Source of the DNA: Micromonospora yangpuensis
Lineage (GTDB): Bacteria; Actinomycetota; Actinomycetes; Mycobacteriales; Micromonosporaceae
Reading direction: 5' to 3'
DNA: 64,000 nt
Assembly (NCBI RefSeq): GCF_900091615.1
Contig: NZ_FMIA01000002.1
Span: forward strand, 3,038,001-3,102,000
A model generated the notes under the pieces. That model saw nothing but the letters and a program-made list of their open reading frames with translations, was not told where the DNA came from and made no database searches. The number at the start of each line of letters is the position of its first letter. Positions within the stretch are counted from its first letter, which is position 1. The translations under genes were made by a program, and so were the position numbers. Shown piece by piece: positions 7,400-27,362 of the stretch.

Positions 7400-7422
7400 G
7401 TTGCCTCCTTCAGTCGGAGGCC

Positions 7423-7438
7423 AGATTGTATGTAATCT
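7423..7438. promoter_or_regulatory. Candidate GntR operator upstream of cupin/mmsA operon
   Basis: AGATTGTATGTAATCT is an imperfect palindrome with 5-bp perfect outer arms. Its core TTGTATGTAA matches TTGTATACAA at 8 of 10 positions. It lies just upstream of the GTG start at 7399 of the minus-strand operon. Confidence 0.55.
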
Positions 7439-7531
7439 GCTTGGCATCGTCTAGGGCTCCGCTCCTCCTGTGCTGCTGCGAGCAGGTAGGAGCGGCTTGT
7501 CTCCTCGCTCCACCGGAGGTCTTAGTGATGG

Positions 7532-7541
7532 TTGTATGCAA
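7532..7541. promoter_or_regulatory. Candidate GntR operator (TTGTATGCAA)
   Basis: TTGTATGCAA matches the locus palindrome TTGTATACAA at 9 of 10 positions. It stands in the non-coding stretch between the divergent cupin operon and the hydantoinase remnant. The rest of 7439-7714 shows no gene that I can support. Confidence 0.5.
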
Positions 7542-7646
7542 TAAGCGGCAATGGGGTGTTCCGACGGGGGTGTGCGGGCCGTCACCGGGCCGGGCCGGGG
7601 GAGTCCGGTCGGGGCGGCGTCTGGTTCTTGTGCCTCAGCCGCAGGG

Positions 7647-7656
7647 TTGTATACGA
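7647..7656. promoter_or_regulatory. Candidate GntR operator upstream of hydantoinase remnant
   Basis: TTGTATACGA matches TTGTATACAA at 9 of 10 positions. It lies 58 nt before the ATG of the truncated dihydropyrimidinase-like frame at 7715, a normal distance for a promoter-overlapping operator. Confidence 0.55.
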
Positions 7657-7714
7657 TCTGGCGCTTAGCCTGTTCTGTCGGTCGCGTTTCCTCACCTGTT
7701 CTGATCGGGGAGAA

Positions 7715-8035
7715 ATGCCGCGAAGATGTGGTCTGGTCGGCGGAGCGGTGGTCGCCGAGGACTGCATCATGGTGTCTGACGTGCTGACCTATTCGAGGCG
7801 CATCGAGTGCGTGGGTCCGGTCCGGCAGTCGGCCGACATCGAGAAGATCGACCTCCGGGGCAAGGTCTTCCGTGCTGAAGGTGTCGATGTGCATACACAT
7901 ATAGATGCCCCGTCCGGGCGGTGGTACGTGCCCGGCCAGGTCGACGCGTTTTGCCTCGGCGGCGCGCTGCCCCGTGGCGGGTGGTCCGTCGTGCGCCGGG
8001 GCGCCGGTCGGTTCGTGGCCCGTCGCGCGGAGTGA
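7715..8035 (+). pseudogene. Remnant of a dihydropyrimidinase/D-hydantoinase gene
   Basis: The frame starts at an ATG with GGGGAG just upstream and reads GGAVVAEDCIMVSDVL, then RRIECVGPVRQSADIEKIDL, then GVDVHTHIDAP. This is the N-terminal pattern of the cyclic amidohydrolase (dihydropyrimidinase/hydantoinase) family: a small beta-domain ending in G-x-D-x-H-x-H, whose two His residues bind the metal. After about residue 68 (near 7918) the similarity stops; the remaining ~38 codons to the TGA at 8035 look like random high-GC sequence. A family member should be about 450-480 residues, so most of the gene has been deleted. Family recognition is from memory of the motif. The loss of the gene in a locus that still encodes other ureide-hydrolysing enzymes is notable. 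Confidence 0.65.
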
Positions 8036-8077: not shown

Positions 8078-8102
8078 TTGACAGGCCGGTATTTGTATAC
8101 AA
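8078..8102 (+). promoter_or_regulatory. Promoter/operator of the transporter-hydantoinase-BMC operon
   Basis: A TTGACA -35 box (8078-8083) is followed at 8093-8102 by the perfect 10-bp palindrome TTGTATACAA, which would occupy the spacer/-10 region. The first gene of the operon starts at 8181. The arrangement suggests repression by a FadR-type GntR protein. Confidence 0.7.
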
Positions 8103-8180
8103 GCATCGCTCGTGTTATCCGCTTTACCGGGTTCGCAGCACTAGATGGAACAAGCTTGCACACAATGTGGAGGTGTCGGC

Positions 8181-9794
8181 ATGGGAAGACGTTCCGTTCG
8201 GGTGCGGGCCGTGGCAGTGCTCGCCGTGGCGGGCCTGGCTCTCGCGGCCTGCGGTGGCGGCGGCGAGCGGGAAGAGTCGGACGCCTCCGGGCGGACGCTG
8301 ACCATCGCCGCCCCGGGAGTCCTGTCGAGTCTCGACTCCGAGCGCTACCAGGGTTACATCTCGATCGATCTGCTACCGAACACCGCCGGCACCCTGGTGC
8401 GCTTCGTGAAGCCCGAGGCCGGCGCGACGAAACTACAGACACCGGACCAGCTCGAAGCCGAACTCGCCGAGTCCTGGACGTTGACCGACGGCGGCAAGAA
8501 GATGTCCTTTACGCTCCGCGACGCCAAGAGTCAGTTCGGCAACCCGATCACCGCCGAGGACGTCAAGTGGTCGGTCGACCGGATGGTCAACAGCACAGGC
8601 GTGCCTATCGCCAAGATCCTGATGGGGATCGGCGGCTGGGACGTCACCAACCCGATCACCGTCGTCGACGACAAGACCTTCACGATCAACGTCGCCCAGC
8701 CCAACGCGGTGAGTCTCTCCATCCTGACCACGTTCTTCATGACGATCTACGACTCGGTGGAGGCCAAGAAGCACGCCACCGCGGACGACCCGTACGCCTA
8801 CAAGTGGCTGGGGGAGAACACGGCGACCTTCGGGCCGTACCAGGTGCGGTCGTTCGACCCGGGCAAGGAGGTCCGGCTCACCGCCAACGAGAACTACTTC
8901 CGAGGTACGCCCAAGGTCAGGGACGTGGTGGTGCGGGCGGTCGCCGACACCTCCAACCGGCTGCAACTGGCCCAGAGCGGGCAGGTCGACGTCGCCACCG
9001 CGATGACCTTCGACCAGCTCTCCTCGCTGCAGAACAGCGGTGACGCCCGGCTGGAACGGGTGCTCTACCCGAACATCGACGTGCTGGTGCCCAACCTCAA
9101 GGCGGAGCCCTTCGACGACAAGCGGGTCCGCGAGGCCATCTCGTACGCGGTCGACCGGCAGGCCATCGTCGACTCGGCGTACCAGGGCTTCTCGGCACCC
9201 TCGACCGACTTCATGCACGACGACTTCGGCGCCCCCGCGGCGAGCCGGCCGCTGGCCCACGACCTGGACCGGGCCAAGCAGTTGCTGGCCGAGGCAGGAC
9301 TGCCGAACGGCTTCCCGATGGAGCTGGCCTACAACGCGGCGAACGTGGGTGCGCACAGTGAGCAGGTGGCCGTGCTGCTGCGGTCGCAGCTGGCCAAGGT
9401 CGGTATCGAGGTGAAACTGAACAACGTCGCCTCCGGCGCCGACTTCGACACCGCCAAGCGCGAGGGCAAGCTGCAGACCTGGCTGGCCACCAGCACACCG
9501 TTGGTCCCCGACCCCGCCTACTACCTGCAGGTCTTCTACTCCACCGGTGGCCTGACCAACCTGCAGAACTACAGCTCGCCCACCCTCGACGGGCTGTCCC
9601 GCCAGATCCTGGAGACCCAGCCGGGACCCGAGCGCGACGCGCTGGTCAAGCAGGTCAACGACTTCCTGGTCGGTGACATGCCGGCGATCCCGCTTGTCGA
9701 CTCCCAGAAGTACTACGTCTTCAAGAAGGGCGTCGACGGCTTCGTCAGCTACTCGCAGGGCCACGTCAACTACTACGACATCAGCGTCTCCTAG
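8181..9794 (+). CDS. ABC transporter substrate-binding lipoprotein, family 5 (oligopeptide type)
   Basis: A 537-residue extracytoplasmic solute-binding protein of the SBP_bac_5 family. The ATG at 8181 has GGAGG 7 nt upstream; the open frame extends 12 codons further but with no ribosome site. The signal peptide ends in a lipobox (LAAC, Cys24) followed by a Gly/Glu/Ser linker. The family signature stretch containing AESWTLTDGGKKMSFTLRD is present, as are the C-terminal lobes typical of dipeptide/nickel-binding proteins. Its permeases and ATPases are encoded at 21798-25660, about 12 kb away, with the enzymes and shell genes between, which indicates that importer and metabolosome belong to one system. 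The ligand may be a cyclic ureide or peptide-like compound; this is inferred from the neighbouring enzymes. Confidence 0.93.
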   Translation: MGRRSVRVRAVAVLAVAGLALAACGGGGEREESDASGRTLTIAAPGVLSSLDSERYQGYISIDLLPNTAGTLVRFVKPEAGATKLQTPDQLEAELAESWTLTDGGKKMSFTLRDAKSQFGNPITAEDVKWSVDRMVNSTGVPIAKILMGIGGWDVTNPITVVDDKTFTINVAQPNAVSLSILTTFFMTIYDSVEAKKHATADDPYAYKWLGENTATFGPYQVRSFDPGKEVRLTANENYFRGTPKVRDVVVRAVADTSNRLQLAQSGQVDVATAMTFDQLSSLQNSGDARLERVLYPNIDVLVPNLKAEPFDDKRVREAISYAVDRQAIVDSAYQGFSAPSTDFMHDDFGAPAASRPLAHDLDRAKQLLAEAGLPNGFPMELAYNAANVGAHSEQVAVLLRSQLAKVGIEVKLNNVASGADFDTAKREGKLQTWLATSTPLVPDPAYYLQVFYSTGGLTNLQNYSSPTLDGLSRQILETQPGPERDALVKQVNDFLVGDMPAIPLVDSQKYYVFKKGVDGFVSYSQGHVNYYDISVS

Positions 9795-9829
9795 GCGAGT
9801 CGGAACTCGAGAAAGCGGGATGTGCACTG

Positions 9830-11890
9830 ATGTACCGACTAGGGGTTGATGTCGGTGGCACCTTCACGGACGTGCTGCTGATCGAGGAGGCGACCGGGCG
9901 GACCCGCCGGACCAAGGTGCCCTCGACACCCCAGGACCAGTCCGTGGGAGTCGTCGAGGGGGTCACCCGGGTCCTCGCCGACGCCCGGGCCAGCGCGGCG
10001 GACATCCGCCAGTTCCTGCACGGCACGACGGTGGCCACCAACGCCGTCCTGGAGCGCCGTGGCGCCCGGGTCGGCCTGGTGGTGACCGTCGGCTACCGGC
10101 AGGTCCTGCACATCGCCAGGTCGTTCGTGCCCGGCGGACTCGGCGGCTGGATCGTCTGGGACCGACCGGCCGAGCTTGTCGCGCTGGCCGACGTCCGCGA
10201 GGTCGGCGGCCGGCTCGACGCCCGGGGCGAGGAGGTCGAGCCGTTGGACGAGGCGGCGGTCCGGGCCGCCGTGCGGCACCTGGTCGACCGGGGCGTCGAC
10301 GCCCTGGCCATCGGCTTCGTCAACTCCTACGCCAACCCCGCGCACGAACAGCGGGCCGCCGAGATCGCCGCCGCCGAGGCGCCCGGCGTGCCGGTCTCCA
10401 CCTCCGCCGGGGTGCTGCCGGAACTCGGCGAGTACGAGCGGACGTTGACCACCGTGGCCAACGCCTACGTACGCCCCGGAGTCGGCTCCTACCTGCGTAA
10501 CCTCAGCGCGAAACTGGTCGACCAGGGGCTGGTGGGCGAGCGCCGGGTGCTCCGCTCCGACGGTGGTCTGATGACCTTCGAACGGGCCGAGGACATCCCG
10601 GTCAGCCTGCTGATGAGCGGCCCCGCCGGTGGGGTCGCCGCGGCGGTCGCCCTGGGACCGGCCGCCGGTCACCCGGACCTGCTCACCCTGGACATGGGCG
10701 GCACATCCACCGACGTCGCGCTGATCGAGAACGGCAGCCCGGTCATCCGCCGCGAGACGACCGTGGCCGACCTGGCCGTCCGGGCCCCGTCGATCGACGT
10801 GCAGACGGTGGGCGCCGGTGGCGGCTCCATCGCGCACGTACCCGAGCTGACCGGTGCGTTGCGGGTCGGACCGGCCAGCGCGGGAGCCCTGCCCGGACCG
10901 GCGACGTACGGCCGGGGCGGGGAACTGCCGACCGTCACCGACGCCAACGTGGTCCTGGGCTACCTGCCGCACGCCCTGTTGGGCGGCGCGATGCCGCTGG
11001 ACGTGGAGAAGGCCCGGACCGCGGTTGGGACCGTCGCGACCCGGCTCGGGGTGTCGGTGGAGGCGGCCGCCGCCGCGATCATCGACATCGTCAACGAGAA
11101 CATGCTCGGTGCGTTGCGGCTGGTCTCGGTGCAGCGCGGCTACGACCCGAGGCGCTTCGCGCTGTTCGGGTTCGGCGGGGCCGGGCCGCTGCACGTCAAC
11201 GCCCTGGCCAGGCTCCTGGGCTCCTGGCCGGTGGTGATCCCCCAGTCGCCGGGGGTGTTGTGCGCCTACGGCGACGCCTCGACCGGAGTCCGGGCGGAGG
11301 CGAACAGGTCGCTGGTCCGTCCGCTCGACGAGGTCGGCGAGGAGCTGCTGCGCCGGGAGTTCACCGAGCTGGCCGGGCAGATCGACACGGAGTTCGACCG
11401 GGCCCGGGTGCCCGCCGAGGCACGGTCGGTGCGGTACGAGGCGGACGTGCGCTACCACGGCCAGGGCTTCGAGGTCTCGGTCGAGGTCGACGCGGCCCGG
11501 CGCACGGACCTGCTCGGCGCACTGCGGGGCGGTTTCGACGAGGCGCACCGACGCCTGTTCGGGTTCTCCCTCGACGAGCGGCACGAGGTGGTCAACATCC
11601 GGGCGGTGGGGCTCTCCGACGCCGAGCGGATCGTTCCCGTCGAGATCGAGTCCGGTGACCGGGATGCCGCGCAGGCGGTCATCGGCCGGCAGCAGGTCTA
11701 CGTCGACGGCGGCTGGCAGGAGGCGGCGCTTTACGACCGCACCGCCCTGCGGGCCGGCAACGAGCTGGCCGGGCCGGCGATCGTGGTCGAGATGGACTCC
11801 ACCAGCCTGGTCCTGCCGGGCTGCGTCGCGCGCGTCGACAGGCTGGGCAACCTGCTCATCCTGCCCGCTGACCAGGGAGGGACCCGATGA
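9830..11890 (+). CDS. hyuA: Hydantoinase/oxoprolinase subunit A (ATP-dependent amidohydrolase)
   Basis: A 686-residue HyuA-type subunit of the family that includes N-methylhydantoinase, 5-oxoprolinase and acetone carboxylase beta. The actin-like ATPase fold begins at once (LGVDVGGTFTDVLLIEEATG). A second phosphate-binding motif is MGGTSTDVALIENG, and GAGGGSIAHV and FGFGGAGPLHVNAL are also family landmarks. The protein is full length. In known members the ATP-dependent ring opening of a cyclic amide needs this subunit plus HyuB. It overlaps hyuB by 4 bp. Immediate linkage to BMC shell genes and to a carbamoyl-sarcosine-amidase-like gene (21163) supports a hydantoin-type substrate over acetone or 5-oxoproline, but the activity is inferred. 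Confidence 0.94.
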   Translation: MYRLGVDVGGTFTDVLLIEEATGRTRRTKVPSTPQDQSVGVVEGVTRVLADARASAADIRQFLHGTTVATNAVLERRGARVGLVVTVGYRQVLHIARSFVPGGLGGWIVWDRPAELVALADVREVGGRLDARGEEVEPLDEAAVRAAVRHLVDRGVDALAIGFVNSYANPAHEQRAAEIAAAEAPGVPVSTSAGVLPELGEYERTLTTVANAYVRPGVGSYLRNLSAKLVDQGLVGERRVLRSDGGLMTFERAEDIPVSLLMSGPAGGVAAAVALGPAAGHPDLLTLDMGGTSTDVALIENGSPVIRRETTVADLAVRAPSIDVQTVGAGGGSIAHVPELTGALRVGPASAGALPGPATYGRGGELPTVTDANVVLGYLPHALLGGAMPLDVEKARTAVGTVATRLGVSVEAAAAAIIDIVNENMLGALRLVSVQRGYDPRRFALFGFGGAGPLHVNALARLLGSWPVVIPQSPGVLCAYGDASTGVRAEANRSLVRPLDEVGEELLRREFTELAGQIDTEFDRARVPAEARSVRYEADVRYHGQGFEVSVEVDAARRTDLLGALRGGFDEAHRRLFGFSLDERHEVVNIRAVGLSDAERIVPVEIESGDRDAAQAVIGRQQVYVDGGWQEAALYDRTALRAGNELAGPAIVVEMDSTSLVLPGCVARVDRLGNLLILPADQGGTR

Positions 11891-13914
11891 GTGCGGTCAT
11901 CGTCGAGACAGCCCGGCAGGCCCGCCCGGTCGAGGTCGAGACCGCGGTGCTCGACATCGTCGAGAACGCCCTGCGCAACGCCCGCTTCGAGATGGACGCC
12001 GTGGTGCTGCGTACCGCGATGTCACCGGGCATCCGCGAGCAGCACGACGCGTTCCCGCTGATCGCCGACCGGCGGGGCCGGATGGTCGCCGGGCAGTTCG
12101 GCTCCTTCATCGACGGCTTCCTCTCCGGCTACGACGGTACGGTCGAGGAGGGGGACGTCTTCTTCACCTCCGACCCCTACGCCTGCGACGGCGCCATCAG
12201 CCACGCCAACGACTGGCTGGTGCTGTTGCCGATCTACTTCGAGCGGGCCCTGGTCGGCTGGGCGGCGATGTTCGGTCACATGAGCGACGTCGGCGGGAAG
12301 GTCCCGGGAAGCCTGCCCACCGATGCGGTGTCGATCCACGAGGAGGGTGTGATCGTCCCGCCGGTGAAGCTGTTCCGGGCCGGGACCCTCGACCAGCAAC
12401 TCCTGGACACCGTGCTCAACCAGGTACGCCTGCCCAGCTGGAACCGGGCCGACCTGAACGCGGTGCTGGCCTCCTGCCGGACCGCCGAGGTGCGGGTACG
12501 TGAACTCTGCGAACGGTTCGGCGTCGACGCCTACCTGTCCACCCTGGAGCTGCTGCTGGAGCGCAACCGGCAGGCGATGGCGAAGCTGTTCCGCCAGGTC
12601 GTGCCCGAGCAGCCGGTCACCTTCGAGGACTTCGTCGACGACGACGGGCGCGGCGAGGGACCGTTCCGCATCCGCTGCTCGCTGTGGCGCGACGGCGACC
12701 AGGTGGTGCTGGACTTCACCGGGACCAGCGACCAGGCCGAGGGATCGATCAACTTCCTGTTGAACGAGAACATCCTGCGGATGTTCTTCGGGGTCTACAC
12801 CATCATGGCGGTCGACCCGATGATCCTGTTCAACGACGGGTTCTATCCGCTGGTCGACGTCCGGATCCCCGAGGGCAGCCTGCTCAAGCCCCGGCGGCCG
12901 GCGGCCGTCTCGTGCCGTACCCACGCCCTGGGGCGGCTGTTCGACGTGCTCGCCGGGTTGCTCGGGCAGTGCCAGCCGGACTTCCTGGCCGCCGCCGGGT
13001 TCTCCTCCAGCCCGCACCTGATGTTCTCCGGCCTGGACCGGCAGGGTAAGTGGTTCCAGCTGTACCAGATCGGCTTCGGCGGCGTCCCGGCCCGCCCGGT
13101 CGGCGACGGCTTCGACGGCCACTCGATGTGGCCCTCGTTCACCAACGTGCCGAACGAGTACCTGGAGGCCTACTACCCGCTGCGGATCGAGTCCTACGAG
13201 TCGGTCCCGGACTCCGGGGGCGCGGGCCGGCACCGGGGCGGCAACGGCATCCGGGTCGGTTACCGCTTCCTCGAACCGGGCGAGGTGTCGATCCACGACG
13301 ACCGGTGGTTCACCAAGCCCTGGGGGGTGCTCGGCGGCGAGCCGGGTGAGCGCGGCACGAAGATCCTGGCCCGGGCCGACGGGTCACGGCAGGTGGTGCC
13401 GGCCAAGTGTGACCACGTCGCGGTCCGACCCGGTGACCTCCTGCACTTCGTCACCTGGGGCGGTGGCGGCTGGGGCGACCCGCTGGAGCGCGACCCGGAG
13501 CAGGTACGCCACGACGTCGAGCGGGGGCTGGTCACCGTCGAGGGCGCCCGCCGGTACGGGGTGGTCCTGACCGGCGGCCGGATCGACGCCGAAGGGACCC
13601 GGGCGTTGCGGGCGAAGCTGGCCGTCGAACGGCCGGCGGAACCGTTGCGGTTCAACCGGGGCGGCACCCTCGACGAACTGCGGGCGCGCTGCCGCGCCGA
13701 GACCGGCCTGGAACCGCCGCGTGCACCGGCGGGCGCCCGAGATGCACCGGAGCCGGCAACCCCCGCGCCGGGCTCCTCCGGTGCGCCCCGGGCCCGCCCG
13801 CGCGGCACCGTGGCCGCAGCGGGCGGCGAACGGCCGACCCGGACACCGCGACCCGCGCGGGCGCCGTTGGAGGCGCTCGTGCACCACATCGCCCGTCAGG
13901 TGACCGGGCGATGA
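11887..13914 (+). CDS. hyuB: Hydantoinase/oxoprolinase subunit B with C-terminal encapsulation-peptide-like tail
   Basis: A 675-residue HyuB-type catalytic partner. The family core runs from AVLDIVENALRNARFEMD through SPGIREQHDAFPLIADRRG, DPYACDGAISHANDW and SGGAGRHRGGNGIRVGYRFL, to roughly residue 612. Canonical members stop near there. This one continues with a ~45-residue linker very rich in Ala, Pro, Gly and Arg, then a short predicted amphipathic helix at the extreme C-terminus (PLEALVHHIARQVTGR). A flexible linker plus terminal amphipathic helix is the hallmark of peptides that target enzymes to the inside of bacterial microcompartments. The BMC-H gene starts 81 bp downstream. I therefore infer that HyuA/HyuB is the encapsulated core enzyme. 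Confidence 0.93.
   Translation: MSAVIVETARQARPVEVETAVLDIVENALRNARFEMDAVVLRTAMSPGIREQHDAFPLIADRRGRMVAGQFGSFIDGFLSGYDGTVEEGDVFFTSDPYACDGAISHANDWLVLLPIYFERALVGWAAMFGHMSDVGGKVPGSLPTDAVSIHEEGVIVPPVKLFRAGTLDQQLLDTVLNQVRLPSWNRADLNAVLASCRTAEVRVRELCERFGVDAYLSTLELLLERNRQAMAKLFRQVVPEQPVTFEDFVDDDGRGEGPFRIRCSLWRDGDQVVLDFTGTSDQAEGSINFLLNENILRMFFGVYTIMAVDPMILFNDGFYPLVDVRIPEGSLLKPRRPAAVSCRTHALGRLFDVLAGLLGQCQPDFLAAAGFSSSPHLMFSGLDRQGKWFQLYQIGFGGVPARPVGDGFDGHSMWPSFTNVPNEYLEAYYPLRIESYESVPDSGGAGRHRGGNGIRVGYRFLEPGEVSIHDDRWFTKPWGVLGGEPGERGTKILARADGSRQVVPAKCDHVAVRPGDLLHFVTWGGGGWGDPLERDPEQVRHDVERGLVTVEGARRYGVVLTGGRIDAEGTRALRAKLAVERPAEPLRFNRGGTLDELRARCRAETGLEPPRAPAGARDAPEPATPAPGSSGAPRARPRGTVAAAGGERPTRTPRPARAPLEALVHHIARQVTGR
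13861..13911 (+). other. Putative BMC encapsulation peptide coding segment in hyuB
   Basis: The segment encodes the last 17 residues of HyuB, APLEALVHHIARQVTGR. Hydrophobic residues at Leu, Leu-Val, Ile and Val recur every three to four positions with Glu, His, Arg and Gln on the other face. It follows a Pro/Ala-rich linker absent from ordinary HyuB proteins. Confidence 0.7.
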
Positions 13915-13995
13915 GTCCACCCCACTTCCAGACCACCACGGTTCTGGGCGACGACGGGCATCCGCCCGCCGACACACTGGTAGAGGAGAACTGTC

Positions 13996-14304
13996 ATGGC
14001 TGACCTGCAGATGTCCGCGCTCGGCATGATCGAGACCCGGGGCCTGGTCGCGGCGGTCGAGGCCGCCGACGCGATGGTCAAGGCCGCCACCGTCGTCCTG
14101 GTGGGCACCGAGTACATCGGCGGCGGCCTGGTCACCGTCGTGGTCCGGGGCGACGTCGGCGCGGTCAAGGCGGCCACCGACGCCGGCGCGGCCAGCGCCT
14201 CCCGGCTCGGTGAGGTCGTCTCCGTGCACGTCATCCCCCGCCCGCACACCGAGGTCGAGGCGATCCTGCCGACCGGGTCGACCCGGGGCGGAACGAAGTC
14301 CTGA
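13996..14304 (+). CDS. BMC-H hexameric microcompartment shell protein 1
   Basis: A 102-residue single BMC-domain protein very close in pattern to PduA/EutM/CcmK. It reads [20 protein letters not shown], then a central EYIGGG segment at the expected pore loop, [20 protein letters not shown], and [14 protein letters not shown]. Six copies form the flat hexagonal tiles of a BMC shell, with the pore admitting substrates. The ATG has AGGAG about 8 nt upstream. The short C-terminal tail ([11 protein letters not shown]) is polar. The assignment as a shell protein is secure from the conserved core; which metabolites pass the pore is unknown. Confidence 0.98.
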
Positions 14305-14338
14305 GCCGGCCCCCATGTTCATCGAAGGAGCTTGACAC

Positions 14339-15157
14339 ATGAGTCGGGTGTGGACTGCTGTCGACATCGAGGACGTCGCCCGGTCGGACGGTCCGCGCGA
14401 GGTCCTGCTGGGCCCGGGTGACCTGATCTCCCCGCACGCGGAGGACATCGCCCGGGGGCTCGGCATCACCGTTCGCCGGGGCGCGGCGGACGGTCGGGCG
14501 GCGTCCGCCCCCGTCCAGGCGACGGCCGGCCCTGCCGGGGCCTCCGCTACCACCGGCACCCCTGCCGGGGCCTCCGCTACCACCGGCACCCCGGGCGGCT
14601 GCGACGACACCGACGGCTGCTCGTGTGGCTGCGAGGGCGCCGAGGAGGCGGAACGGACCATCCGTACCATCGCCGCCGCGGTGGTGTCCGCCAACCCCGA
14701 CGCCGACGCCTCGACGGTGGCGACCGAGACGCTGCGGGCGCTCGGCGCCTACGGCGGGCCGGGCGTGGGCAGCCCCGAGCAGGCCCAACCGCTGCCCGGA
14801 CAGACGCTGCCCCGCAAGGCCAAGGGCGCCCGCCCGCAGTTCTTCGCCGAGCCGGGCATGGAGGCCCTGGTCTCGACGATGGTGACCCTCACCTCGGAGG
14901 TGTGGGTGCTGCGGGAGCGGGTGATGACCCTGGAACAGCTGCTCGCCGACCGGCGGGTGGTGGAGCGGGGTGCGGTGGACGACTTCACCGTCGCCGCCTC
15001 CGACGCCGAGACCAGGGACGCCGAGGCGGCGGCGTTCGTCGCCCGGGTACTGCGGGTCTTCTACGAGTGGCGCGAGGAGATCGTGCGGGAGGAGACCCCG
15101 GAGTCCTACCGGGAGGTCATCCGGCAGGCCTTCGCGCAGGTGGGGGAGGGCAAGTGA
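14339..15157 (+). CDS. BMC-associated protein with EutQ-like N-terminal segment, unknown function
   Basis: A 272-residue protein that I do not recognise as a whole. Residues 1-47 (TAVDIEDVARSDG, VLLGPGDLISPHAEDIARGL, GITV) follow the pattern of the N-terminal segment of EutQ and similar BMC proteins: T-A-x-D-I, then I-T/S-P-x-A-x-x-x-A-x-x-L-G-I. A low-complexity linker follows, with a duplicated PAGASATTGT unit, then a cysteine cluster (GGCDDTDGCSCGCEG; C-x5-C-x-C-x-C) that could bind metal or be redox-active. The rest (~95-272) is soluble and helical, with a proline-rich break and a helix-rich C-terminal half (TLTSEVWVLRERVMTLEQLL; FVARVLRVFYEWREEIVREE). It lies between shell genes, and its TGA overlaps the methyltransferase GTG start. 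A lumen scaffold or cargo role is plausible inference. Confidence 0.75.
   Translation: MSRVWTAVDIEDVARSDGPREVLLGPGDLISPHAEDIARGLGITVRRGAADGRAASAPVQATAGPAGASATTGTPAGASATTGTPGGCDDTDGCSCGCEGAEEAERTIRTIAAAVVSANPDADASTVATETLRALGAYGGPGVGSPEQAQPLPGQTLPRKAKGARPQFFAEPGMEALVSTMVTLTSEVWVLRERVMTLEQLLADRRVVERGAVDDFTVAASDAETRDAEAAAFVARVLRVFYEWREEIVREETPESYREVIRQAFAQVGEGK
14531..14590 (+). repeat. Two exact 30-bp in-frame tandem copies
   Basis: Positions 14531-14560 and 14561-14590 are identical. Each encodes the decapeptide PAGASATTGT in the linker between the EutQ-like N-terminus and the Cys cluster of the BMC-associated protein. Copy number probably varies between strains. Confidence 0.9.
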
Positions 15158-16314
15158 AACAGCAGCACCGGCACGGCCTGTTGCCGACGGAGAACCACGA
15201 CGAACTCGCCCGGGAAACCTTCGTGCGGGCCCTGAAGGCGCACATCTCCACCGAGGTGACCCCCGGGGTCCGGGAGCTGTACGCGCACCGCGTCGCACCC
15301 CGCTACCAGCGGGAGATGGGTGTCCCGCCGCGGGACCGTGAGACGGTCCGCCGGGCGATGGAACCCGAGCCGTACTACCAGCTCTGGAGTTCGGTCCGGC
15401 GGGCGAGCCAGGACCTGCTCTGGAACGTGGTGGCCGACAGCATCGTCCGCCAGCTGGACGACCTGCGGGCGAAGGCGGAGCCGTCCGGGCGGGTGCGGGG
15501 CTCGCTCGAACTGGATCACGACTTCGAACTGCCCTGGTACTTCTGGGGCATCGACATCCACGCCATGCCCGGCGGCTACCGGGGCGAGTACGCCCCGGGC
15601 GACGTCACCGCCGGTGCGCTCTACGACCGGGGCGTCTACGTCTACGCCACCGGGCAGATGGGCGAGCTGAACGACGACTACGGCCAGTCGGTGGTGAACA
15701 ACTACCTCAAGCCGGAGCACCGGGATTTCCGGCCCCGGCGCATCCTGGAGATCGGCTGCGGGGTGGGCAACTCGACCCTGCCGTACGTGGACGCCTATCC
15801 CGACGCCGAGGTGCACGGCATCGACGTCGGCGCGGCCCTGCTGCGATACGGCCACGGCCGTGCCGAGTCTCTGGGCCGCAAGGTGCACTTCTCCCAGCAG
15901 AACGCGGAGGCCACCGCGTTTCCCACCGGGCACTTCGACCTGGTCGTCTCGCACATCCTGTTGCACGAGATGCCACCGGAGGCGGTCCGCGCGGTCCTGC
16001 GGGAGTGCCACCGGCTGCTCGCCCCCGGCGGGATGATGATCCACGCGGACTTCCCGGGCTACGCCGGCCTGGACCCGCTGGCGCAGTTCCTCATCGACTG
16101 GGACACCTGGAACAACAACGAACCGTTCTGGGGGCCGATGCGGGACATGGACCTGGTCCAGGCCGCCCGGGACGCCGGGTTCACCGGCGACTGCACCGAG
16201 CTGTCCTGCAAGCGGGACTGCGTCGAGGAGGTCTCCACCCCCACCGGCCGGGTGCTGCAGAGCGGTGAACGCCGCAGCAGCGGCACCCTGGCCTTGCTCG
16301 TGGGTCGGCGCTGA
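15154..16314 (+). CDS. SAM-dependent class I methyltransferase within the BMC operon
   Basis: A 386-residue protein starting at GTG 15154, which overlaps the previous stop. The Rossmann methyltransferase core begins near residue 195 with motif I ILEIGCGVGNSTLP, then an acidic motif II (VHGIDVGAALL), a motif IV region (FDLVVSHILLHEM) and LRECHRLLAPGGMMI. The ~190-residue N-terminal domain (HDFELPWYFWGIDIHAMPGG is a distinctive Trp-rich stretch) is not typical of small methyltransferases and probably forms a substrate lid. The substrate is unknown. In the context of a ureide-degrading metabolosome, N- or carboxyl-methylation of an intermediate is possible. A methyltransferase set among shell genes is unusual. 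Confidence 0.88.
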   Translation: MKQQHRHGLLPTENHDELARETFVRALKAHISTEVTPGVRELYAHRVAPRYQREMGVPPRDRETVRRAMEPEPYYQLWSSVRRASQDLLWNVVADSIVRQLDDLRAKAEPSGRVRGSLELDHDFELPWYFWGIDIHAMPGGYRGEYAPGDVTAGALYDRGVYVYATGQMGELNDDYGQSVVNNYLKPEHRDFRPRRILEIGCGVGNSTLPYVDAYPDAEVHGIDVGAALLRYGHGRAESLGRKVHFSQQNAEATAFPTGHFDLVVSHILLHEMPPEAVRAVLRECHRLLAPGGMMIHADFPGYAGLDPLAQFLIDWDTWNNNEPFWGPMRDMDLVQAARDAGFTGDCTELSCKRDCVEEVSTPTGRVLQSGERRSSGTLALLVGRR

Positions 16315-16315
16315 C

Positions 16316-19815: not shown

Positions 19816-19821
19816 CCGGCA

Positions 19822-19833: not shown

Positions 19834-19872
19834 AAGGCGCGGACGCCGAGTCCGTGCCGGCAAAAACAAGTG

Positions 19873-19907: not shown

Positions 19908-19938
19908 GACCACTCGGTGGCTGCTATGAGAGGTGTTC

Positions 19939-21150
19939 ATGACTAGCGATCTGCACCACGAAGGACCGCTGCACGGCGTGCGCGTGGTCGAGTTCGGCTC
20001 CCTGCTCGCGGGGCCCTTCTGCAGCCAGCTGCTGGCCGACTTCGGCGCCGAGGTCATCAAGTGCGAGCCACCGCGTCAGGGCGACCCGATGCGCGAGTGG
20101 GGCCAGGAGAAGCCGCACGGCAAGTCGCTGTGGTGGCCGATCGTGGCCCGCAACAAGAAGTCGGTCACCGTGGACCTGCGCACCCCCGAGGGGCAGGACG
20201 TCGCCCGGCGGCTGATCGCCCAGTGCGACGTGGTGGTGGAGAACTTCCGCCCCGGGACGATGAAGCGCTGGGGGCTCGGCTACGAGCAGCTGTCGGTGGC
20301 CAACCCCGGCCTGGTCATGGTCCAGGTCTCCGGCTTCGGCCAGAACGGCCCCTACTCGGCACGCCCCGGTTACGGTTCCGTCGGGGAGGCCATGGGCGGC
20401 CTGCGGTACGTCGTCGGCGACCCGCAGACCCCGCCGAGCCGGGTCGGCATCAGCCTCGGCGACTCCCTGGCGGGCACCTTCGCCGCCCTGGGCGCGCTGC
20501 TGGCGTTGCGGGTGCGCGACCGGACCGGCCGCGGCCAGATCGTCGACTCGGCGATCTACGAGGCGGTCCTGGCGATGATGGAGTCGCTGCTTCCCGAGTA
20601 CGCCCTGGGTGGCCACGTGCGCGAGCGCACCGGCGCCATCCTGCCCAACATCGCCCCGTCCAACGTGTACCCGACCCGAGACGAGGGGCTGGTGCTCATC
20701 GCGGCCAACCAGGACACCGTCTTCCGCCGGTTGGCCGTGGCCATGGGCATGGCGGAGCTGGGCACCGACCCACGTTTCGCCAGCCACGCCGCACGGGGCC
20801 GCAACCAGGTCGAGCTGGACGAGATCATCGCGAAGTGGTCGGGGCAGCACGACACCGAGGAACTGATGGCGGTGATGATCGAGAACGACGTACCGACCGG
20901 GCGGGTCTACCGGGCCCCGGAGATGCTGCGCGACGAGCACTTCGCCGCCCGCGAGGCGATCGTCCGGATCGCCCACCCCGAGTTCGGCGAGTTCCCGATG
21001 CAGAACGTGGTGCCCAGGCTGTCGATGACCCCGGGACGGGTGAAGTGGACCGGACCGCGGCTGGGTGAACACACCGACGAGGTCCTGACCGACATCGTGG
21101 GCATGGAGACGGCCGAGATCGACGCGCTGCGCACCAGCGGCGTCATCTAG
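19939..21150 (+). CDS. Family III CoA-transferase (CaiB/BaiF/formyl-CoA transferase type)
   Basis: A 403-residue class III CoA-transferase, which exchanges CoA between a donor thioester and a free carboxylic acid. The ATG at 19939 is preferred over the GTG two codons upstream because GAGAGG lies 5 nt before it. Family landmarks are VVEFGSLLAGPFCSQLLADFGAEVIKCE, the nucleophilic Asp175 in GISLGDSLAGT and VVENFRPGTM. It begins a second operon of the regulon and is followed 12 bp later by the cysteine hydrolase. It probably activates the acid released by ureide hydrolysis, or a downstream acid handled by the HMG-CoA-lyase-like enzyme; the actual acid is not predictable. Confidence 0.94.
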   Translation: MTSDLHHEGPLHGVRVVEFGSLLAGPFCSQLLADFGAEVIKCEPPRQGDPMREWGQEKPHGKSLWWPIVARNKKSVTVDLRTPEGQDVARRLIAQCDVVVENFRPGTMKRWGLGYEQLSVANPGLVMVQVSGFGQNGPYSARPGYGSVGEAMGGLRYVVGDPQTPPSRVGISLGDSLAGTFAALGALLALRVRDRTGRGQIVDSAIYEAVLAMMESLLPEYALGGHVRERTGAILPNIAPSNVYPTRDEGLVLIAANQDTVFRRLAVAMGMAELGTDPRFASHAARGRNQVELDEIIAKWSGQHDTEELMAVMIENDVPTGRVYRAPEMLRDEHFAAREAIVRIAHPEFGEFPMQNVVPRLSMTPGRVKWTGPRLGEHTDEVLTDIVGMETAEIDALRTSGVI

Positions 21151-21162
21151 CGGCGGCGCACG

Positions 21163-21798
21163 GTGAACGATCTCCAGGGGGACTACCGCAGGGCGGGCTT
21201 CGGCGGCGGCCTGGGGCACGGATCGAGCCGCGCGCTGCTCGTGGTCGACCTCGTCCGGGCCTACCTCGATCCGGCGTCACCGCTCTACGCCGGCCAGCCG
21301 GAACCGCCGGCCCTGCGGGCCTGCGCCACACTGCTCGACGCCGCGCGGCGCCAGCACGTGCCGGTGATCCACACCCGGGTCGAGCTCGCCCCCGGTGGAC
21401 TCGACGGCGGCCTGTTCACCCGCAAGGTGCCGGCCCTGCGGGTCTTCGAACGCGGCGGTGAGTTCGCCGCCGCACCACCGGAGCTGGCTCCCGTCGCCGG
21501 TGAACCGGTGGTGACCAAGCAGTACGCCAGCGCCTTCTTCGGCACCAGCCTGGCCAGCACCCTGCGGGTGCTCGGGGTGGACGCGTTGCTGATCGTCGGC
21601 GCCTCGACGAGCGGGTGCGTCCGGGCAACCGCGGTGGACGCGTTGCAGCACGGGTTCGTCCCGCTCGTCGTGGCCGACGCCTGTCTGGACCGGGACCCAC
21701 GCCCGCACCAGGCCACGTTGTTCGACCTGGCCGCGAAGTACGCCGAGGTCCTGACCCTCGACGAGGCGATGGCGCTGCTCGGACCGGGAGGTGCGTGA
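21163..21798 (+). CDS. Cysteine hydrolase, isochorismatase fold, N-carbamoylsarcosine-amidase-like
   Basis: A 211-residue isochorismatase-fold hydrolase. The triad is visible as Asp29 (ALLVVDLVRAYLDP), Lys119 (PVVTKQYASAFFGT) and Cys152 (VGASTSGCVRATAVDALQHG). The VDLVRAYLDPASPLYAG stretch is typical of N-carbamoylsarcosine amidase and close relatives, which split an N-carbamoyl amino acid into amino acid, CO2 and ammonia. In the creatinine route an ATP-dependent N-methylhydantoinase (HyuA/HyuB type) makes the carbamoyl compound that this amidase hydrolyses. Finding both enzyme types here is the main argument for a hydantoin-like substrate. The GTG start is at 21163; the TGA overlaps the permease ATG. 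Confidence 0.92.
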   Translation: MNDLQGDYRRAGFGGGLGHGSSRALLVVDLVRAYLDPASPLYAGQPEPPALRACATLLDAARRQHVPVIHTRVELAPGGLDGGLFTRKVPALRVFERGGEFAAAPPELAPVAGEPVVTKQYASAFFGTSLASTLRVLGVDALLIVGASTSGCVRATAVDALQHGFVPLVVADACLDRDPRPHQATLFDLAAKYAEVLTLDEAMALLGPGGA

Positions 21799-25660: not shown

Positions 25661-25685
25661 CCGGGTGCGTGCCGGCCGGGCGGTG

Positions 25686-25719
25686 CCCCCGGTCGATGGT
25701 CGCCGCCGCCGACCGGGGG
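25686..25719. terminator. Bidirectional hairpin terminator between converging genes
   Basis: CCCCCGGTCG (25686-25695) pairs perfectly with CGACCGGGGG (25710-25719) across a 14-nt loop. It lies between the stops of the ABC ATPase (25660, plus) and the GntR gene (25723, minus). There is no clear T-tract, as is usual in high-GC actinomycetes. Confidence 0.6.
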
Positions 25720-25722
25720 TGC

Positions 25723-26385
25723 TCAGGGTCGGGGCTCGGCGCGGTCCGTCATGGCGTCCAGCAGCACCCGGCGCGCGGCCAGCACGTGGGCCCGCATGGT
25801 GCTCGACGCCCACTCGGCGTCCCGGGTCCGCAGCGCCGCCACCAGATCACGGTGGTGCGCCATGCTGCGGGCCAGCGCGTCCGGTGTGTAGAGCCGGAAC
25901 GCCCGGATGATCAGTGGCACCTCCACCACGGCCGACAACAGCGAGGTCAGCCGCGGACTCGCGGCGGCGCTGATGACCAGCCCGTGCAGCTCGGCGTTGA
26001 GGCTGGCGATCTCGTCCAGGTCCGGCGGGGTCATCCGCTCCGCCCGCTGTTCCATCTGGTCGCAGAGCAGGCTGAGCTTCGGTAGCCAGTCGGCGTCGAT
26101 GCGGTGGGCGGCCAACGCCGCGCCGTAGCTCTCCAGCCGGGCCCGGATCTCGTAGGTGTCCTGCAGGTCACTGAGTGACCACTCCGCGACCCGGGCGCCG
26201 CGGTTGGGCTGGAAGACGACGAGCCCCTCCGCCGTGAGCCGGCGCAGAGCCTCCCGGATCGGCGTCCTGCTCACCCCGAACTGCCGGGACAGTTCGACCT
26301 CACCCAACCGTTCCCGTGGGCCGATGGAGCCGCTCAGAATCGCAGCCCGTAACGCCTCGTAGGCGTCCTGGCCGGCATTCGTCAC
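25723..26385 (-). CDS. GntR-family transcriptional regulator, FadR/FCD subfamily
   Basis: A 220-residue repressor-type regulator. The N-terminal winged helix has the classic AYEALRAAILSGSIGPRERL, LSRQFGVSRTPIREALRRL and EGLVVFQPNRGARVAE segments. The C-terminal half is an all-helical FCD ligand/metal-binding domain (ETYEIRARLESYGAALAA-like region, then AELHGLVISAAASPRL and MAHHRDLVAALRTRDA with the His residues that usually co-ordinate metal). It is divergent from the HMG-CoA-lyase-like gene, and their shared 74-bp gap contains TTGTATACAC. FadR-type regulators bind short palindromes of this kind, so it is the obvious regulator of the TTGTATACAA sites across the BMC locus; the ligand is presumably a pathway intermediate. 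Confidence 0.94.
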   Translation of the reverse strand: MTNAGQDAYEALRAAILSGSIGPRERLGEVELSRQFGVSRTPIREALRRLTAEGLVVFQPNRGARVAEWSLSDLQDTYEIRARLESYGAALAAHRIDADWLPKLSLLCDQMEQRAERMTPPDLDEIASLNAELHGLVISAAASPRLTSLLSAVVEVPLIIRAFRLYTPDALARSMAHHRDLVAALRTRDAEWASSTMRAHVLAARRVLLDAMTDRAEPRP

Positions 26386-26449
26386 CGTGCCTCCGTGGTG
26401 TCGAGTGATGGCGGGCTGGCATCCTTGCCGCCCGTCCGACGGTCTGAGA

Positions 26450-26459
26450 TTGTATACAC
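26450..26459. promoter_or_regulatory. GntR operator abutting the lyase start codon
   Basis: TTGTATACAC matches the locus palindrome at 9 of 10 positions and directly precedes the ATG at 26460. A repressor bound here would block initiation of the lyase gene. No Shine-Dalgarno sequence is present, so the lyase mRNA may be leaderless or start further upstream. Confidence 0.65.
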
Positions 26460-27362
26460 ATGACGGTTGGTGTGGTGGAAGTGTCCCCCCGGGACGGGTT
26501 GCAGAACGAGGCCGAGATCCTGCCGACAGCGCGCAAGATCGAGCTCATCCGACGGTGCGTCGACGCCGGAGCCCGCCGGGTCGAGGCGGTCTCGTTCGTC
26601 CGCGCCGACCGGGTGCCCCAGATGGCCGATGCGGAGGCCGTCATGGCCGAGGTGCCCCGACACAGCGACGTATCGTACATCGGTCTGGTGCTCAACCGGC
26701 GCGGGCTCGACCGGGCGCTCGCCGCCGGGGTGGACGAGGTCAACTGTGTCGTGGTCGCCACCGAGACGTTCAGTCGACGCAACCAGGGCGCCTCGGTCGA
26801 CGCCATGGTCCAGCAGTGGGCCGCGATAGCCGGAGCCGCCCACGCCGCCGGCCGGAAGGCCAGCGTCACCGTGGCCGCCGCCTTCGGCTGCCCCTTCGAG
26901 GGCGAGGTCGCCCCGACGGTCGTCGCCGACCTGGTGCGACGGTTGGCCGCCGCCGAGCCGGACGAGATCGCCCTGGCCGACACCATCGGTGTGGGAGTTC
27001 CCGCCCAGGTCCGGCAGCTGGTGCGGGCCGCCGCGGCGGCGGCCCCGGGGGTGCCGCTGCGCGCGCACTTCCACGACACCCGCAACACCGGCATCGCCAA
27101 CGCGCTGGCGGCGGTCGAGGCCGGCGTGCGGGTTCTCGACGCCAGTGTCGGCGGGATCGGTGGCTGCCCCTTCGCCCCGGCGGCCACCGGCAACGTCGCG
27201 ACCGAGGACCTGGTCTACGCGCTGCACCGCTCCGGTCATCCGACCGGCCTGGACCCCCGGCTGGTGATCGGGACGGCCGCCTGGATCGGCGACCAACTCG
27301 GCAAGGCCACTGTGCCGGGTGCGCTCGGTCGGGCCGGCTGGTTCCCGGCCGAGCCGCAGTGA
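26460..27362 (+). CDS. HMG-CoA-lyase-like DRE-TIM metallolyase
   Basis: A 300-residue TIM-barrel lyase of the hydroxymethylglutaryl-CoA lyase group, which cleaves 3-hydroxy-acyl-CoA compounds to acetyl-CoA and a keto acid. The barrel starts VVEVSPRDGLQNE (Arg11-Asp12). The metal-binding HFHDTRNTG (His203, His205) and the catalytic-loop Cys236 in GGIGGCPFAPAATGNVATED are all present. Length is normal for MvaB-type enzymes. The start codon directly follows a GntR operator, and the regulator gene is divergent. In the BMC pathway it could cleave the CoA ester produced by the class III CoA-transferase after oxidation by the flavoprotein; this order is inference. Confidence 0.92.
   Translation: MTVGVVEVSPRDGLQNEAEILPTARKIELIRRCVDAGARRVEAVSFVRADRVPQMADAEAVMAEVPRHSDVSYIGLVLNRRGLDRALAAGVDEVNCVVVATETFSRRNQGASVDAMVQQWAAIAGAAHAAGRKASVTVAAAFGCPFEGEVAPTVVADLVRRLAAAEPDEIALADTIGVGVPAQVRQLVRAAAAAAPGVPLRAHFHDTRNTGIANALAAVEAGVRVLDASVGGIGGCPFAPAATGNVATEDLVYALHRSGHPTGLDPRLVIGTAAWIGDQLGKATVPGALGRAGWFPAEPQ

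What the first reader, a model, noticed from the sequence alone, without database searches (positions are those of the whole stretch)
7400..27362. A microcompartment locus built around an ATP-dependent hydantoinase instead of an aldehyde dehydrogenase
Seen: two BMC-H genes, one BMC-T and one BMC-P (13996-17577) are interleaved with hyuA/hyuB, a methyltransferase and an EutQ-like-N-terminus protein, and flanked by an N-carbamoylsarcosine-amidase-like gene and a dedicated oligopeptide-type importer. Known: catabolic BMCs normally carry an aldehyde dehydrogenase, alcohol dehydrogenase and phosphotransacylase; some catalogued BMC types lack these and have no assigned function. Inference: this compartment degrades a cyclic ureide. 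HyuAB would open the ring using ATP and the amidase would release CO2 and ammonia. What needs containment could be a reactive or volatile carbamoyl intermediate, or ATP-costly chemistry. A Micromonosporaceae metabolosome of this composition seems little described.
Basis: partly seen in the sequence, partly recalled or inferred. Interest (0 to 1): 0.95.

Follow-up and report, generated by a model that had tools for sequence, protein, structure and literature searches.

The report
Organelle for ATP-driven ring opening
Some Micromonospora bacteria carry genes for a complete protein-shelled compartment whose predicted cargo is an enzyme that would spend ATP to open nitrogen-containing rings rather than the usual aldehyde chemistry; distant relatives carry the core enzymes with no shell genes beside them, so the locus likely shows how a free pathway became an organelle.

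Summary
A full shell set (two BMC-H, CcmP-like BMC-T, BMC-P) shares a tight operon with hyuA/hyuB; 18 genes (8145-27362) keep their order in all 5 of 151 sampled Micromonospora genomes that have the methyltransferase at 88% identity or more. HyuB ends in a fast-evolving linker and a conserved tail of encapsulation-peptide layout, absent from most close homologues and mapping to one clade. The 'EutQ-like' protein joins a EutQ head to a domain that elsewhere is a separate gene beside the methyltransferase, so it is probably its adaptor. Elsewhere in the phylum CoA-transferase, HyuAB and amidase (often with GntR and an HMG-CoA-lyase-like gene) form a module with no shell genes nearby; TTGTATACAA copies mark likely promoters of the locus and of 3 of 9 modules. 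These partners suit a cyclic imide or lactam better than a ureide. Correction: an MMSDH-type aldehyde dehydrogenase lies 2 kb upstream on the other strand. Substrate and encapsulation are untested; identity with the catalogued BUF2 type could not be checked.

The parts
4564..6054 (-). CoA-acylating methylmalonate-semialdehyde dehydrogenase-type aldehyde dehydrogenase; neighbour, membership of the system unsure
   Evidence: TIGR01722 687.5 bits; syntenic in 3 of 4 relatives; termini of the window's protein printed, no encapsulation-type tail seen
6611..7447 (-). ChrR-type cupin; neighbour, membership unsure
   Evidence: PF12973; syntenic in 4 of 4 relatives
8093..8102 (.). TTGTATACAA palindrome, likely GntR operator of operon 1
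   Evidence: conserved in 4 of 4 relatives with at most 1 mismatch
8145..9794 (+). family 5 solute-binding protein (importer)
   Evidence: PF00496 262 bits
9830..11890 (+). HyuA, ATP-binding subunit of a predicted ATP-dependent cyclic-amide hydrolase
   Evidence: PF05378, PF01968, PF19278; CapA model 516 bits, below its 1000 cut-off; motifs DVGGTFTD, DMGGTSTD, GALPGP
11887..13914 (+). HyuB, metal-binding subunit with C-terminal linker and encapsulation-peptide-like tail
   Evidence: PF02538 478 bits; metal-ligand equivalents D54, H106, D109, H131; tail
13867..13911 (+). conserved end of HyuB (last 15 residues), predicted encapsulation peptide
   Evidence: last 15 residues 88% mean pairwise identity in 5 species against 45% in the linker
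13996..14304 (+). BMC-H shell protein 1
   Evidence: PF00936 97.7 bits
14339..15157 (+). EutQ-headed adaptor: N-domain, disordered Cys-containing linker, helix, C-terminal methyltransferase-partner domain
15154..16314 (+). class I SAM methyltransferase, likely cargo through the adaptor
   Evidence: PF13649; close homologues 386 aa; partner pairing
16316..16948 (+). BMC-T, CcmP-like
   Evidence: NF053796 211 bits; best PDB match CcmP 4ht5, 180 bits
16968..17255 (+). BMC-P pentamer
   Evidence: PF03319 93.9 bits
17257..17577 (+). BMC-H shell protein 2
   Evidence: PF00936 68.5 bits
17579..18385 (+). alpha/beta hydrolase
   Evidence: PF00561
18382..19815 (+). FAD-binding oxidoreductase, fumarate-reductase/TcuA-like
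   Evidence: PF00890 201 bits; flavocytochrome c3 134 bits
19897..19906 (.). TTGTATACAA palindrome, likely GntR operator of operon 2
   Evidence: exact in 4 of 4 relatives
19933..21150 (+). CoA-transferase family III, dicarboxylate type
   Evidence: PF02515 434 bits; succinate-glutarate CoA-transferase model 285 bits, below cut-off
21163..21798 (+). isochorismatase-family amidase (maleamate/N-carbamoylsarcosine amidohydrolase group)
   Evidence: PF00857
21798..25660 (+). two permeases and two ATPases of an oligopeptide-type importer
   Evidence: PF00528, PF00005, PF08352
25723..26385 (-). GntR/FCD regulator
   Evidence: PF07729, PF00392; orthologues in 4 of 4 relatives and 37-52% identical in 6 of 9 sibling loci
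26450..26459 (.). TTGTATACAC (one mismatch to the palindrome), likely operator between GntR and HMGL
   Evidence: conserved in 4 of 4 relatives with 1 mismatch
26460..27362 (+). HMG-CoA-lyase-like enzyme
   Evidence: PF00682; NF004283 305 bits, over its 246 cut-off

Best explanation
This is a complete microcompartment gene locus whose predicted cargo is an ATP-dependent cyclic-amide hydrolase, HyuAB, which would be carried into the shell by a helical tail on HyuB, together with a methyltransferase likely carried in by a EutQ-headed adaptor. Shown by sequence: the shell gene set, the tight gene run and synteny, the HyuB tail that most close homologues lack, the adaptor's domain fusion, the conserved operator-like palindromes, and a CoA-transferase/HyuAB/amidase module (often with GntR and an HMG-CoA-lyase-like gene) without neighbouring shell genes in other actinobacteria. 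Inferred: a small cyclic imide or lactam is imported by the ABC system; HyuAB opens its ring with ATP, probably with bicarbonate as in caprolactamase; the isochorismatase-type amidase removes ammonia from the resulting half-amide; the FAD enzyme adjusts the acid, the CoA-transferase makes its CoA ester and the lyase cleaves it to central metabolites. The shell would keep the ring compound and the ATP-spending step apart from the cytosol. The GntR protein likely controls the promoters together through TTGTATACAA. The roles of the methyltransferase and the alpha/beta hydrolase are unknown; a methyl-ester protect/deprotect pair is one guess.
For: Shell genes and HyuAB in one gene run: 10 consecutive junctions from the binding-protein gene to the FAD gene, -4 to 81 nt apart. 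Gene order SBP-HyuA-HyuB-BMC-H-adaptor-MT-BMC-T-BMC-P-BMC-H-ABH-FAD-CoAT3-amidase-importer-HMGL identical in 5 of 5 genomes (ends cut by the fetch are covered). HyuB tail: in 5 species core 93%, linker 45%, last 15 residues 88% mean pairwise identity. A tail pattern matches 22 of 134 HyuB rows, which need one change on the tree; it matches 0 of 2680 28-residue stretches of HyuB cores and 0 of 145 C-termini of MT and adaptor homologues. Tailed HyuB share their longest-contig length with an adaptor or MT homologue in 9 of 17, the other listed HyuB in 0 of 103. The adaptor C-domain is found in a separate reading frame just downstream of the MT paralogue in 13 of 13 held loci of other Micromonospora (14 such matches were listed, 13 had a locus); its N-domain model finds EutQ. 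Sibling module: CoAT3, HyuA, HyuB and amidase in 9 of 9 fetched loci, HMGL in 6 of 9; no shell, adaptor, MT, ABH or FAD gene by tblastn at E <= 1e-4 within the 6 to 20 kb held. Hydrolase side of the HyuAB family: HyuA 412 and 406 bits to N-methylhydantoinase and caprolactamase, 143 to 279 to carboxylase subunits; HyuB 225 and 189 against 69 to 127. One sibling (L179) abuts a three-subunit molybdenum hydroxylase of xanthine dehydrogenase type, which suits an N-heterocycle; imide opening followed by half-amide hydrolysis is the published end of fungal nicotinate breakdown, by unrelated enzymes (PMC9304392, passages read).
Against: No assay, transcript or micrograph. The first tail pattern matched 14 rows and missed the window's own clade; I widened it after seeing that, so it is fitted to these rows, and two further rows with a related tail (P0193, P0209), which the first form had matched, escape the widened one. 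Hydrophobic moments of the tails overlapped those of controls (window tail 0.18; two tail-less controls 0.57 and 0.67), so that measure does not support an amphipathic helix. Over 21 tailed rows the last 15 residues average 54% identity with a minimum of 0; they were compared without gaps and some tails are shifted. Only HyuB was seen to carry such a tail; whether amidase, CoA-transferase and lyase are inside is unknown. The adaptor model has pTM 0.31 and no structural match at E <= 0.001. An MMSDH-type aldehyde dehydrogenase stays next to the locus in 3 of 4 relatives, which fits a more classical reading. In one sibling (L180) two unrelated genes separate HyuB from the amidase, and the other sibling neighbours scanned showed no common theme. 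In 6 of 9 sibling loci no palindrome copy with at most one mismatch was found.
Confidence: 0.57

Rival explanations
1. One reading: the compartment degrades a cyclic ureide (hydantoin, N-methylhydantoin or dihydropyrimidine). HyuAB would make an N-carbamoyl amino acid and the amidase would release CO2, ammonia and an amino acid; for dihydropyrimidines the neighbouring MMSDH-type dehydrogenase could finish beta-alanine or beta-aminoisobutyrate breakdown.
For: HyuA and HyuB score best with an N-methylhydantoinase in the PDB; the amidase scores 147 bits with N-carbamoylsarcosine amidohydrolase and weakly with biuret hydrolase and RutB models; MMSDH next door.
Against: The partners that follow HyuAB and amidase outside the shell are CoA-transferase III (9 of 9) and HMG-CoA-lyase-like (6 of 9), which an amino-acid product does not call for; no aminotransferase family was hit among the 18 genes, and the sarcosine-oxidase-type DAO model matched the FAD enzyme only below its cut-off.
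Confidence: 0.22
2. HyuAB is a carboxylase and the shell is a carboxysome-like device that feeds CO2/bicarbonate to a ketone carboxylase, followed by CoA transfer and lyase cleavage.
For: Same superfamily as acetone and acetophenone carboxylases; the BMC-T is CcmP-like; CoA activation follows carboxylation in ketone breakdown (recalled).
Against: Scores favour hydrolases by over 100 bits for HyuA and about 60 to 155 for HyuB; no third carboxylase subunit among the genes scanned; the conserved amidase is then unexplained.
Confidence: 0.07
3. A disguised classical metabolosome: the real core is the neighbouring CoA-acylating aldehyde dehydrogenase (4564-6054), with HyuAB and partners only generating its semialdehyde.
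For: MMSDH-type enzyme syntenic in 3 of 4 relatives; metabolosomes usually hold an aldehyde dehydrogenase (PMC8217296, passages read); one sibling stretch (L178) has a 63% identical dehydrogenase about 6 kb from the module.
Against: It is on the other strand, 2.1 kb away, and was not found in the 14 kb fetched from one relative; no terminal tail seen in the window's protein; no palindrome copy before it in the relatives at up to one mismatch; no phosphotransacylase or alcohol dehydrogenase hit among the 18 genes.
Confidence: 0.1
4. Shell and HyuAB share an operon but HyuAB stays outside; the methyltransferase is the only cargo.
For: The adaptor with EutQ N-domain pairs with the methyltransferase; sibling HyuAB loci have no shell genes nearby.
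Against: The HyuB tail lies on the branch that carries adaptor and methyltransferase and is conserved at its end while the linker drifts.
Confidence: 0.08

Closest known systems
BUF (BMC of unknown function) loci, BUF1-3 (Axen 2014 PMC4207490, passages read; Sutter 2021 PMC8217296, section 8 and passages read)
   Same: Complete shell, no aldehyde dehydrogenase in the locus; the 2014 BUF locus also lists amidohydrolases, an isochorismatase and a 'carbon monoxide hydrogenase'; BUF2 is confined to one phylum, and the text places BUF2/3 (printed 'BUF23', my reading) in the tree of BMC-T(dp) proteins.
   Different: The 2014 BUF is from Firmicutes with other enzymes; the word hydantoinase does not occur in either main text. 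Locus diagrams are in Supplementary Data 2, which could not be read here, so identity with BUF2 is open.
Caprolactamase CapAB and ATP-dependent hydantoinases (PMC8453981, passages read)
   Same: Two-subunit ATP-dependent hydrolase with the same ATP motifs and metal ligands.
   Different: CapB (581 aa) aligns to its end with the HyuB core, so it has no such tail; substrate here unknown; scores are below the CapA/CapB model cut-offs; no vicinal Cys pair in HyuB.
ARO compartment of Micromonospora (PMC10470539, passages read)
   Same: Same genus, ring-compound catabolism in a compartment.
   Different: ARO uses a 2-aminophenol/catechol dioxygenase and an aldehyde dehydrogenase, and its shell has one BMC-P and two BMC-H types (PMC8217296 section 8).
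EutQ
   Same: N-terminal segment.
   Different: No EutQ/cupin family was hit; the C-terminal part is a methyltransferase-partner domain.
Cyclic-imide branch of fungal nicotinate breakdown, HxnM/HxnN (PMC9304392, passages read)
   Same: Order of events proposed here: imide opened to a half-amide, then amide hydrolysis.
   Different: Unrelated enzymes; nothing in the passages read about ATP use at that step or a protein shell.

Membership tests
Bacterial microcompartment | BMC-H and BMC-P shell genes (PF00936, PF03319) | tested here: met
   two BMC-H, one BMC-T, one BMC-P over the Pfam cut-offs; whole-genome searches: PF00936 2 matches at E <= 0.001 (the BMC-T falls short there), PF03319 1 match
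Bacterial microcompartment | cargo with encapsulation peptide (amphipathic terminal helix on a linker) | tested here: inconclusive
   layout and conservation of the HyuB tail fit; hydrophobic moment does not separate it from controls; no localisation data
Bacterial microcompartment | visible polyhedral particles | not testable with these tools
   needs electron microscopy
Classical metabolosome | aldehyde dehydrogenase plus phosphotransacylase plus alcohol dehydrogenase in the locus | tested here: not met
   no such families hit among the 18 genes; one aldehyde dehydrogenase lies outside on the other strand
BUF type | complete shell, no aldehyde dehydrogenase in the locus | tested here: met
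   definition read; the nearby AldDH is a reservation
BUF2 specifically | shell-protein HMM types and locus diagram of Supplementary Data 2 | not testable with these tools
ATP-dependent lactamase/hydantoinase family | ATP motifs and metal-ligand tetrad | tested here: met
   HyuA D7, D288, GALPGP 352; HyuB D54, H106, D109, H131
ATP-dependent lactamase/hydantoinase family | hydrolysis of a cyclic amide | not testable with these tools
   needs assay
Caprolactamase proper | NCBIfam cut-off for CapA and CapB | tested here: not met
   516 and 188 bits against 1000 each
ARO compartment | pfam02900 ring-opening oxygenases and an aldehyde dehydrogenase | tested here: not met
   neither hit among the 18 genes; definition

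The most novel reading that the evidence does not exclude
A further compartment paradigm beside carboxysome and aldehyde metabolosome: the shell isolates an ATP-dependent ring-opening enzyme. CapAB, a relative of HyuAB, burns ATP almost as fast without substrate (0.44 against 0.51 U/mg, both with 50 mM bicarbonate; PMC8453981 Table 2); a shell could hold the enzyme with its ring substrate and limit this futile, bicarbonate-dependent ATP loss. The passage from free pathway to organelle is written in the sequence: HyuB apparently gained a tail once, and a methyltransferase partner was fused to a EutQ head.
Probability: 0.3. Interest if true: 0.92.

Novelty: new variant of a known kind. Interest (0 to 1): 0.81.

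Why it matters
Compartments without an aldehyde dehydrogenase were flagged in 2014 as a possible third kind and have no assigned function in the passages read here. This locus names a concrete candidate signature enzyme with a targeting-type tail, gives sibling operons without neighbouring shell genes as natural controls, and gives a regulator with a defined candidate operator, so that the question 'what does a non-aldehyde compartment do' becomes testable in culturable actinomycetes. It would also show how cargo is recruited: by a new tail on one subunit and by grafting a targeting head onto a partner protein.

Tried and rejected
The 3.2 kb stretches that brought in the BMC-P genes of 21 other genomes of the order (22 of 397 with own) show no HyuA or HyuB either. 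A fold search with the adaptor model gave nothing at E <= 0.001. Hydrophobic moment did not separate tails from controls. MT in 396 genomes of the phylum at E <= 1e-30: only the window's genome has a close copy, two others 31-36%. HyuB sibling searches: 11 of 396, 1 of 3 and 8 of 66 genomes, overlapping sets that count the own or centre genome. Literature: no paper in the held library has 'bacterial microcompartment' with 'hydantoinase' and 'actinobacteria'; two have the first two and by title are about enzyme scaffolds (listing only); 'BUF2' occurs with 'microcompartment' in one paper; no paper joins three of hydantoinase, HMG-CoA lyase, CoA transferase and isochorismatase; a microcompartment/Micromonospora search listed only the ARO paper and the catalog; a citrazinic/isonicotinic search gave nothing useful. 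An isonicotinate/citrazinate route was considered from recall and is not claimed. Rows dropped: adaptor alignment used 23 of 25 hits (P0132 partial and P0138 of odd length left out); the contig-length comparison used 114 of 120 listed MT hits; identities of linkers over tailed rows used 21 of 22 (one lacks the anchor motif); sibling loci fetched 9 of 10 non-own hits; EutQ-head hits scanned 10 of 14.

Full report
What is there. The window lies in an actinomycete genome of 6.52 Mb. On the + strand from 8145 to 25660 lie 17 genes: solute-binding protein, HyuA, HyuB, BMC-H, a EutQ-headed protein, a methyltransferase (MT), BMC-T, BMC-P, BMC-H, alpha/beta hydrolase, FAD enzyme, CoA-transferase III, isochorismatase-family amidase, and two permeases plus two ATPases. 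Junctions run from -8 to 117 nt. A GntR/FCD regulator follows on the - strand (25723-26385) and an HMG-CoA-lyase-like gene on the + strand (26460-27362).

Conservation. MT at 88% identity or more occurs in 5 of 151 sampled genomes of the genus, own included. In all five the 18 genes from the binding protein to the lyase keep order and strand (genes cut by the fetch are seen whole), and GntR is present in 4 of 4 relatives. In 396 sampled genomes of the phylum no other close MT copy was found. Protein searches add Luedemannella (HyuB), Streptosporangium violaceochromogenes (MT, adaptor) and metagenomes. So the type is rare in these samples but not confined to one strain.

HyuB carries the ticket. 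After the catalytic core, HyuB of the five species has a linker of about 49 residues with 45% mean pairwise identity and then 15 terminal residues with 88% (core 93%). A terminal helix of 15-20 residues on a poorly conserved, disordered linker is how encapsulation peptides are described (PMC8217296 and PMC12339742, passages read). The 17 best HyuB hits end in such a tail (656-686 aa); of 121 rows examined (120 hits plus the window), 87 have fewer than 25 residues after the core motif, though these are 63 to 71% identical to the window's HyuB, and six of the other hits are fused to a short-chain dehydrogenase domain. On a tree of 134 HyuB rows cut at residue 600, before the tail, the 22 rows with the pattern need one change. 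Two rows next to that clade (SH-aLRT 82; P0209 from an Acidimicrobiia record, P0193 unnamed) have a related tail that the final pattern misses. The pattern was widened after its first version missed the window's clade; with the widened form the background is 0 of 2680 core stretches and 0 of 145 other C-termini. Longest-contig lengths, used as a fingerprint, link 9 of 17 tailed HyuB hits to an adaptor or MT homologue and 0 of the other 103.

The EutQ-headed protein is an adaptor. Its first 50 residues are predicted with block confidence 90 to 95 and its residues 53-97 are disordered. An HMM of that head finds proteins in other BMC loci, at E from 1e-7 to 0.24; of ten scanned out of 14, seven are EutQ by Pfam, one is a flavoprotein, two have no family. 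An HMM of its C-terminal domain finds a separate reading frame directly behind the MT paralogue in 13 of 13 held loci of other genomes of the genus (14 matches listed) and, at E <= 0.001, in 1 of 4 loci of two more distant genomes. Hence the C-domain is likely an MT partner, and the fusion would bring MT into the shell. In one such locus (L140) the pair sits with an Old-Yellow-type flavoenzyme, an importer, an M20-type hydrolase and an alpha/beta hydrolase. The reaction of MT stays unknown; its PDB matches are weak and its NCBIfam matches lie below their cut-offs.

The pathway looks older than the shell. Nine fetched HyuB sibling loci (9 of the 10 non-own hits) all hold CoA-transferase III, HyuA, HyuB and the amidase close together (CoA-transferase cut by the contig end in two; two other genes between HyuB and amidase in L180); six hold the lyase-like gene; six hold a GntR 37 to 52% identical; by tblastn at E <= 1e-4 none holds a shell, adaptor, MT, alpha/beta-hydrolase or FAD gene in the 6 to 20 kb held. 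The rest of those genomes was not searched for shells. The shared core is therefore CoA-transferase, HyuAB, amidase, often lyase and GntR; shell, adaptor, MT, hydrolase, FAD enzyme and this importer are the additions.

One regulon. The palindrome TTGTATACAA with up to two mismatches occurs 8 times in the window against 1.23 expected, 0 of 100 shuffles reaching 8. Copies with at most one mismatch lie before the binding-protein gene (8093), in the longest gap of the gene run, before CoA-transferase (19897), and between GntR and the lyase (26450). All three are kept in 4 of 4 relatives at up to one mismatch, and a copy lies directly before GntR in 3 of 9 sibling loci; in the other six none was found. 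That this palindrome suits a GntR/FCD protein is recalled. Two more one-mismatch copies (7532, 7647) between the cupin and binding-protein genes were not seen in the relatives.

What HyuAB does. HyuA keeps both phosphate motifs and the adenosine motif, and HyuB keeps the four metal ligands mapped from caprolactamase. Scores place both subunits nearer to N-methylhydantoinase and caprolactamase than to acetone and acetophenone carboxylases, and no third carboxylase subunit was hit. I conclude a cyclic-amide hydrolase. Ureide or imide? The amidase fits both (157 bits to 3ot4, 147 bits to N-carbamoylsarcosine amidohydrolase). The company of a dicarboxylate-type CoA-transferase and often an HMG-CoA-lyase-like enzyme suits a product that is an acid to be activated and cleaved, thus imide or lactam. 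A molybdenum hydroxylase of xanthine dehydrogenase type, in three subunits, next to the module in L179 hints at an N-heterocycle upstream. Fungal nicotinate breakdown shows imide opening followed by half-amide hydrolysis, with intermediates that slow growth. The exact substrate is not identified.

Against. An MMSDH-type aldehyde dehydrogenase (687.5 bits, cut-off 448.5) lies at 4564-6054 on the other strand; it is syntenic in 3 of 4 relatives and the cupin between it and the locus in 4 of 4. Its termini in the window show no tail, and no palindrome copy at up to one mismatch lies before it in the relatives. It weakens the phrase 'instead of an aldehyde dehydrogenase', and leaves a small chance of a classical core. 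One sibling stretch (L178) also has a 63% identical dehydrogenase about 6 kb from the module. The own genome has 19 aldehyde-dehydrogenase matches in all. The hydrophobic moment measure did not set the tails apart.

Compared with known types. The locus meets the definition of BUF (complete shell, no aldehyde dehydrogenase in the locus). The catalog says BUF2 is confined to one phylum and places BUF2/3 among BMC-T(dp) types (the print reads 'BUF23'), so this may be BUF2; the diagrams are in a supplement I could not open. The searches made found no paper that links hydantoinase with a microcompartment in the sense meant here (listings only). I therefore rate it a new variant of a known kind: shell ordinary, predicted core chemistry and cargo recruitment new.

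Noticed in passing
window 4564-6054 (-) and 6611-7447 (-): CoA-acylating MMSDH-type aldehyde dehydrogenase and a ChrR-type cupin, divergent from the compartment operon and syntenic with it in 3 of 4 and 4 of 4 relatives.
   Followed up: partly
P0168, P0182, P0187, P0207, P0226, P0247: HyuB homologues without the tail fused to a short-chain dehydrogenase domain (849-914 aa), hinting at the next step in some sibling pathways.
   Followed up: no
L111-L123, L140, L141: A second MT/partner pair in other Micromonospora, in L140 with an Old-Yellow-type flavoenzyme, NMT1-type importer, M20 hydrolase and alpha/beta hydrolase: probably another catabolic operon.
   Followed up: partly
P0193, P0209: HyuB with a different terminal helix-like tail (P0209 from an Acidimicrobiia record), possibly a second compartment lineage.
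   Followed up: no
L179 1-4023: Three-subunit xanthine-dehydrogenase-type molybdenum hydroxylase next to the sibling module.
   Followed up: partly
window 28678-31077 (+), 31200-32369 (-), 34843-36654 (-): Cobalamin-independent methionine synthase, an AbfB-domain protein and a periplasmic-binding protein (PF01497) downstream; no link seen.
   Followed up: no
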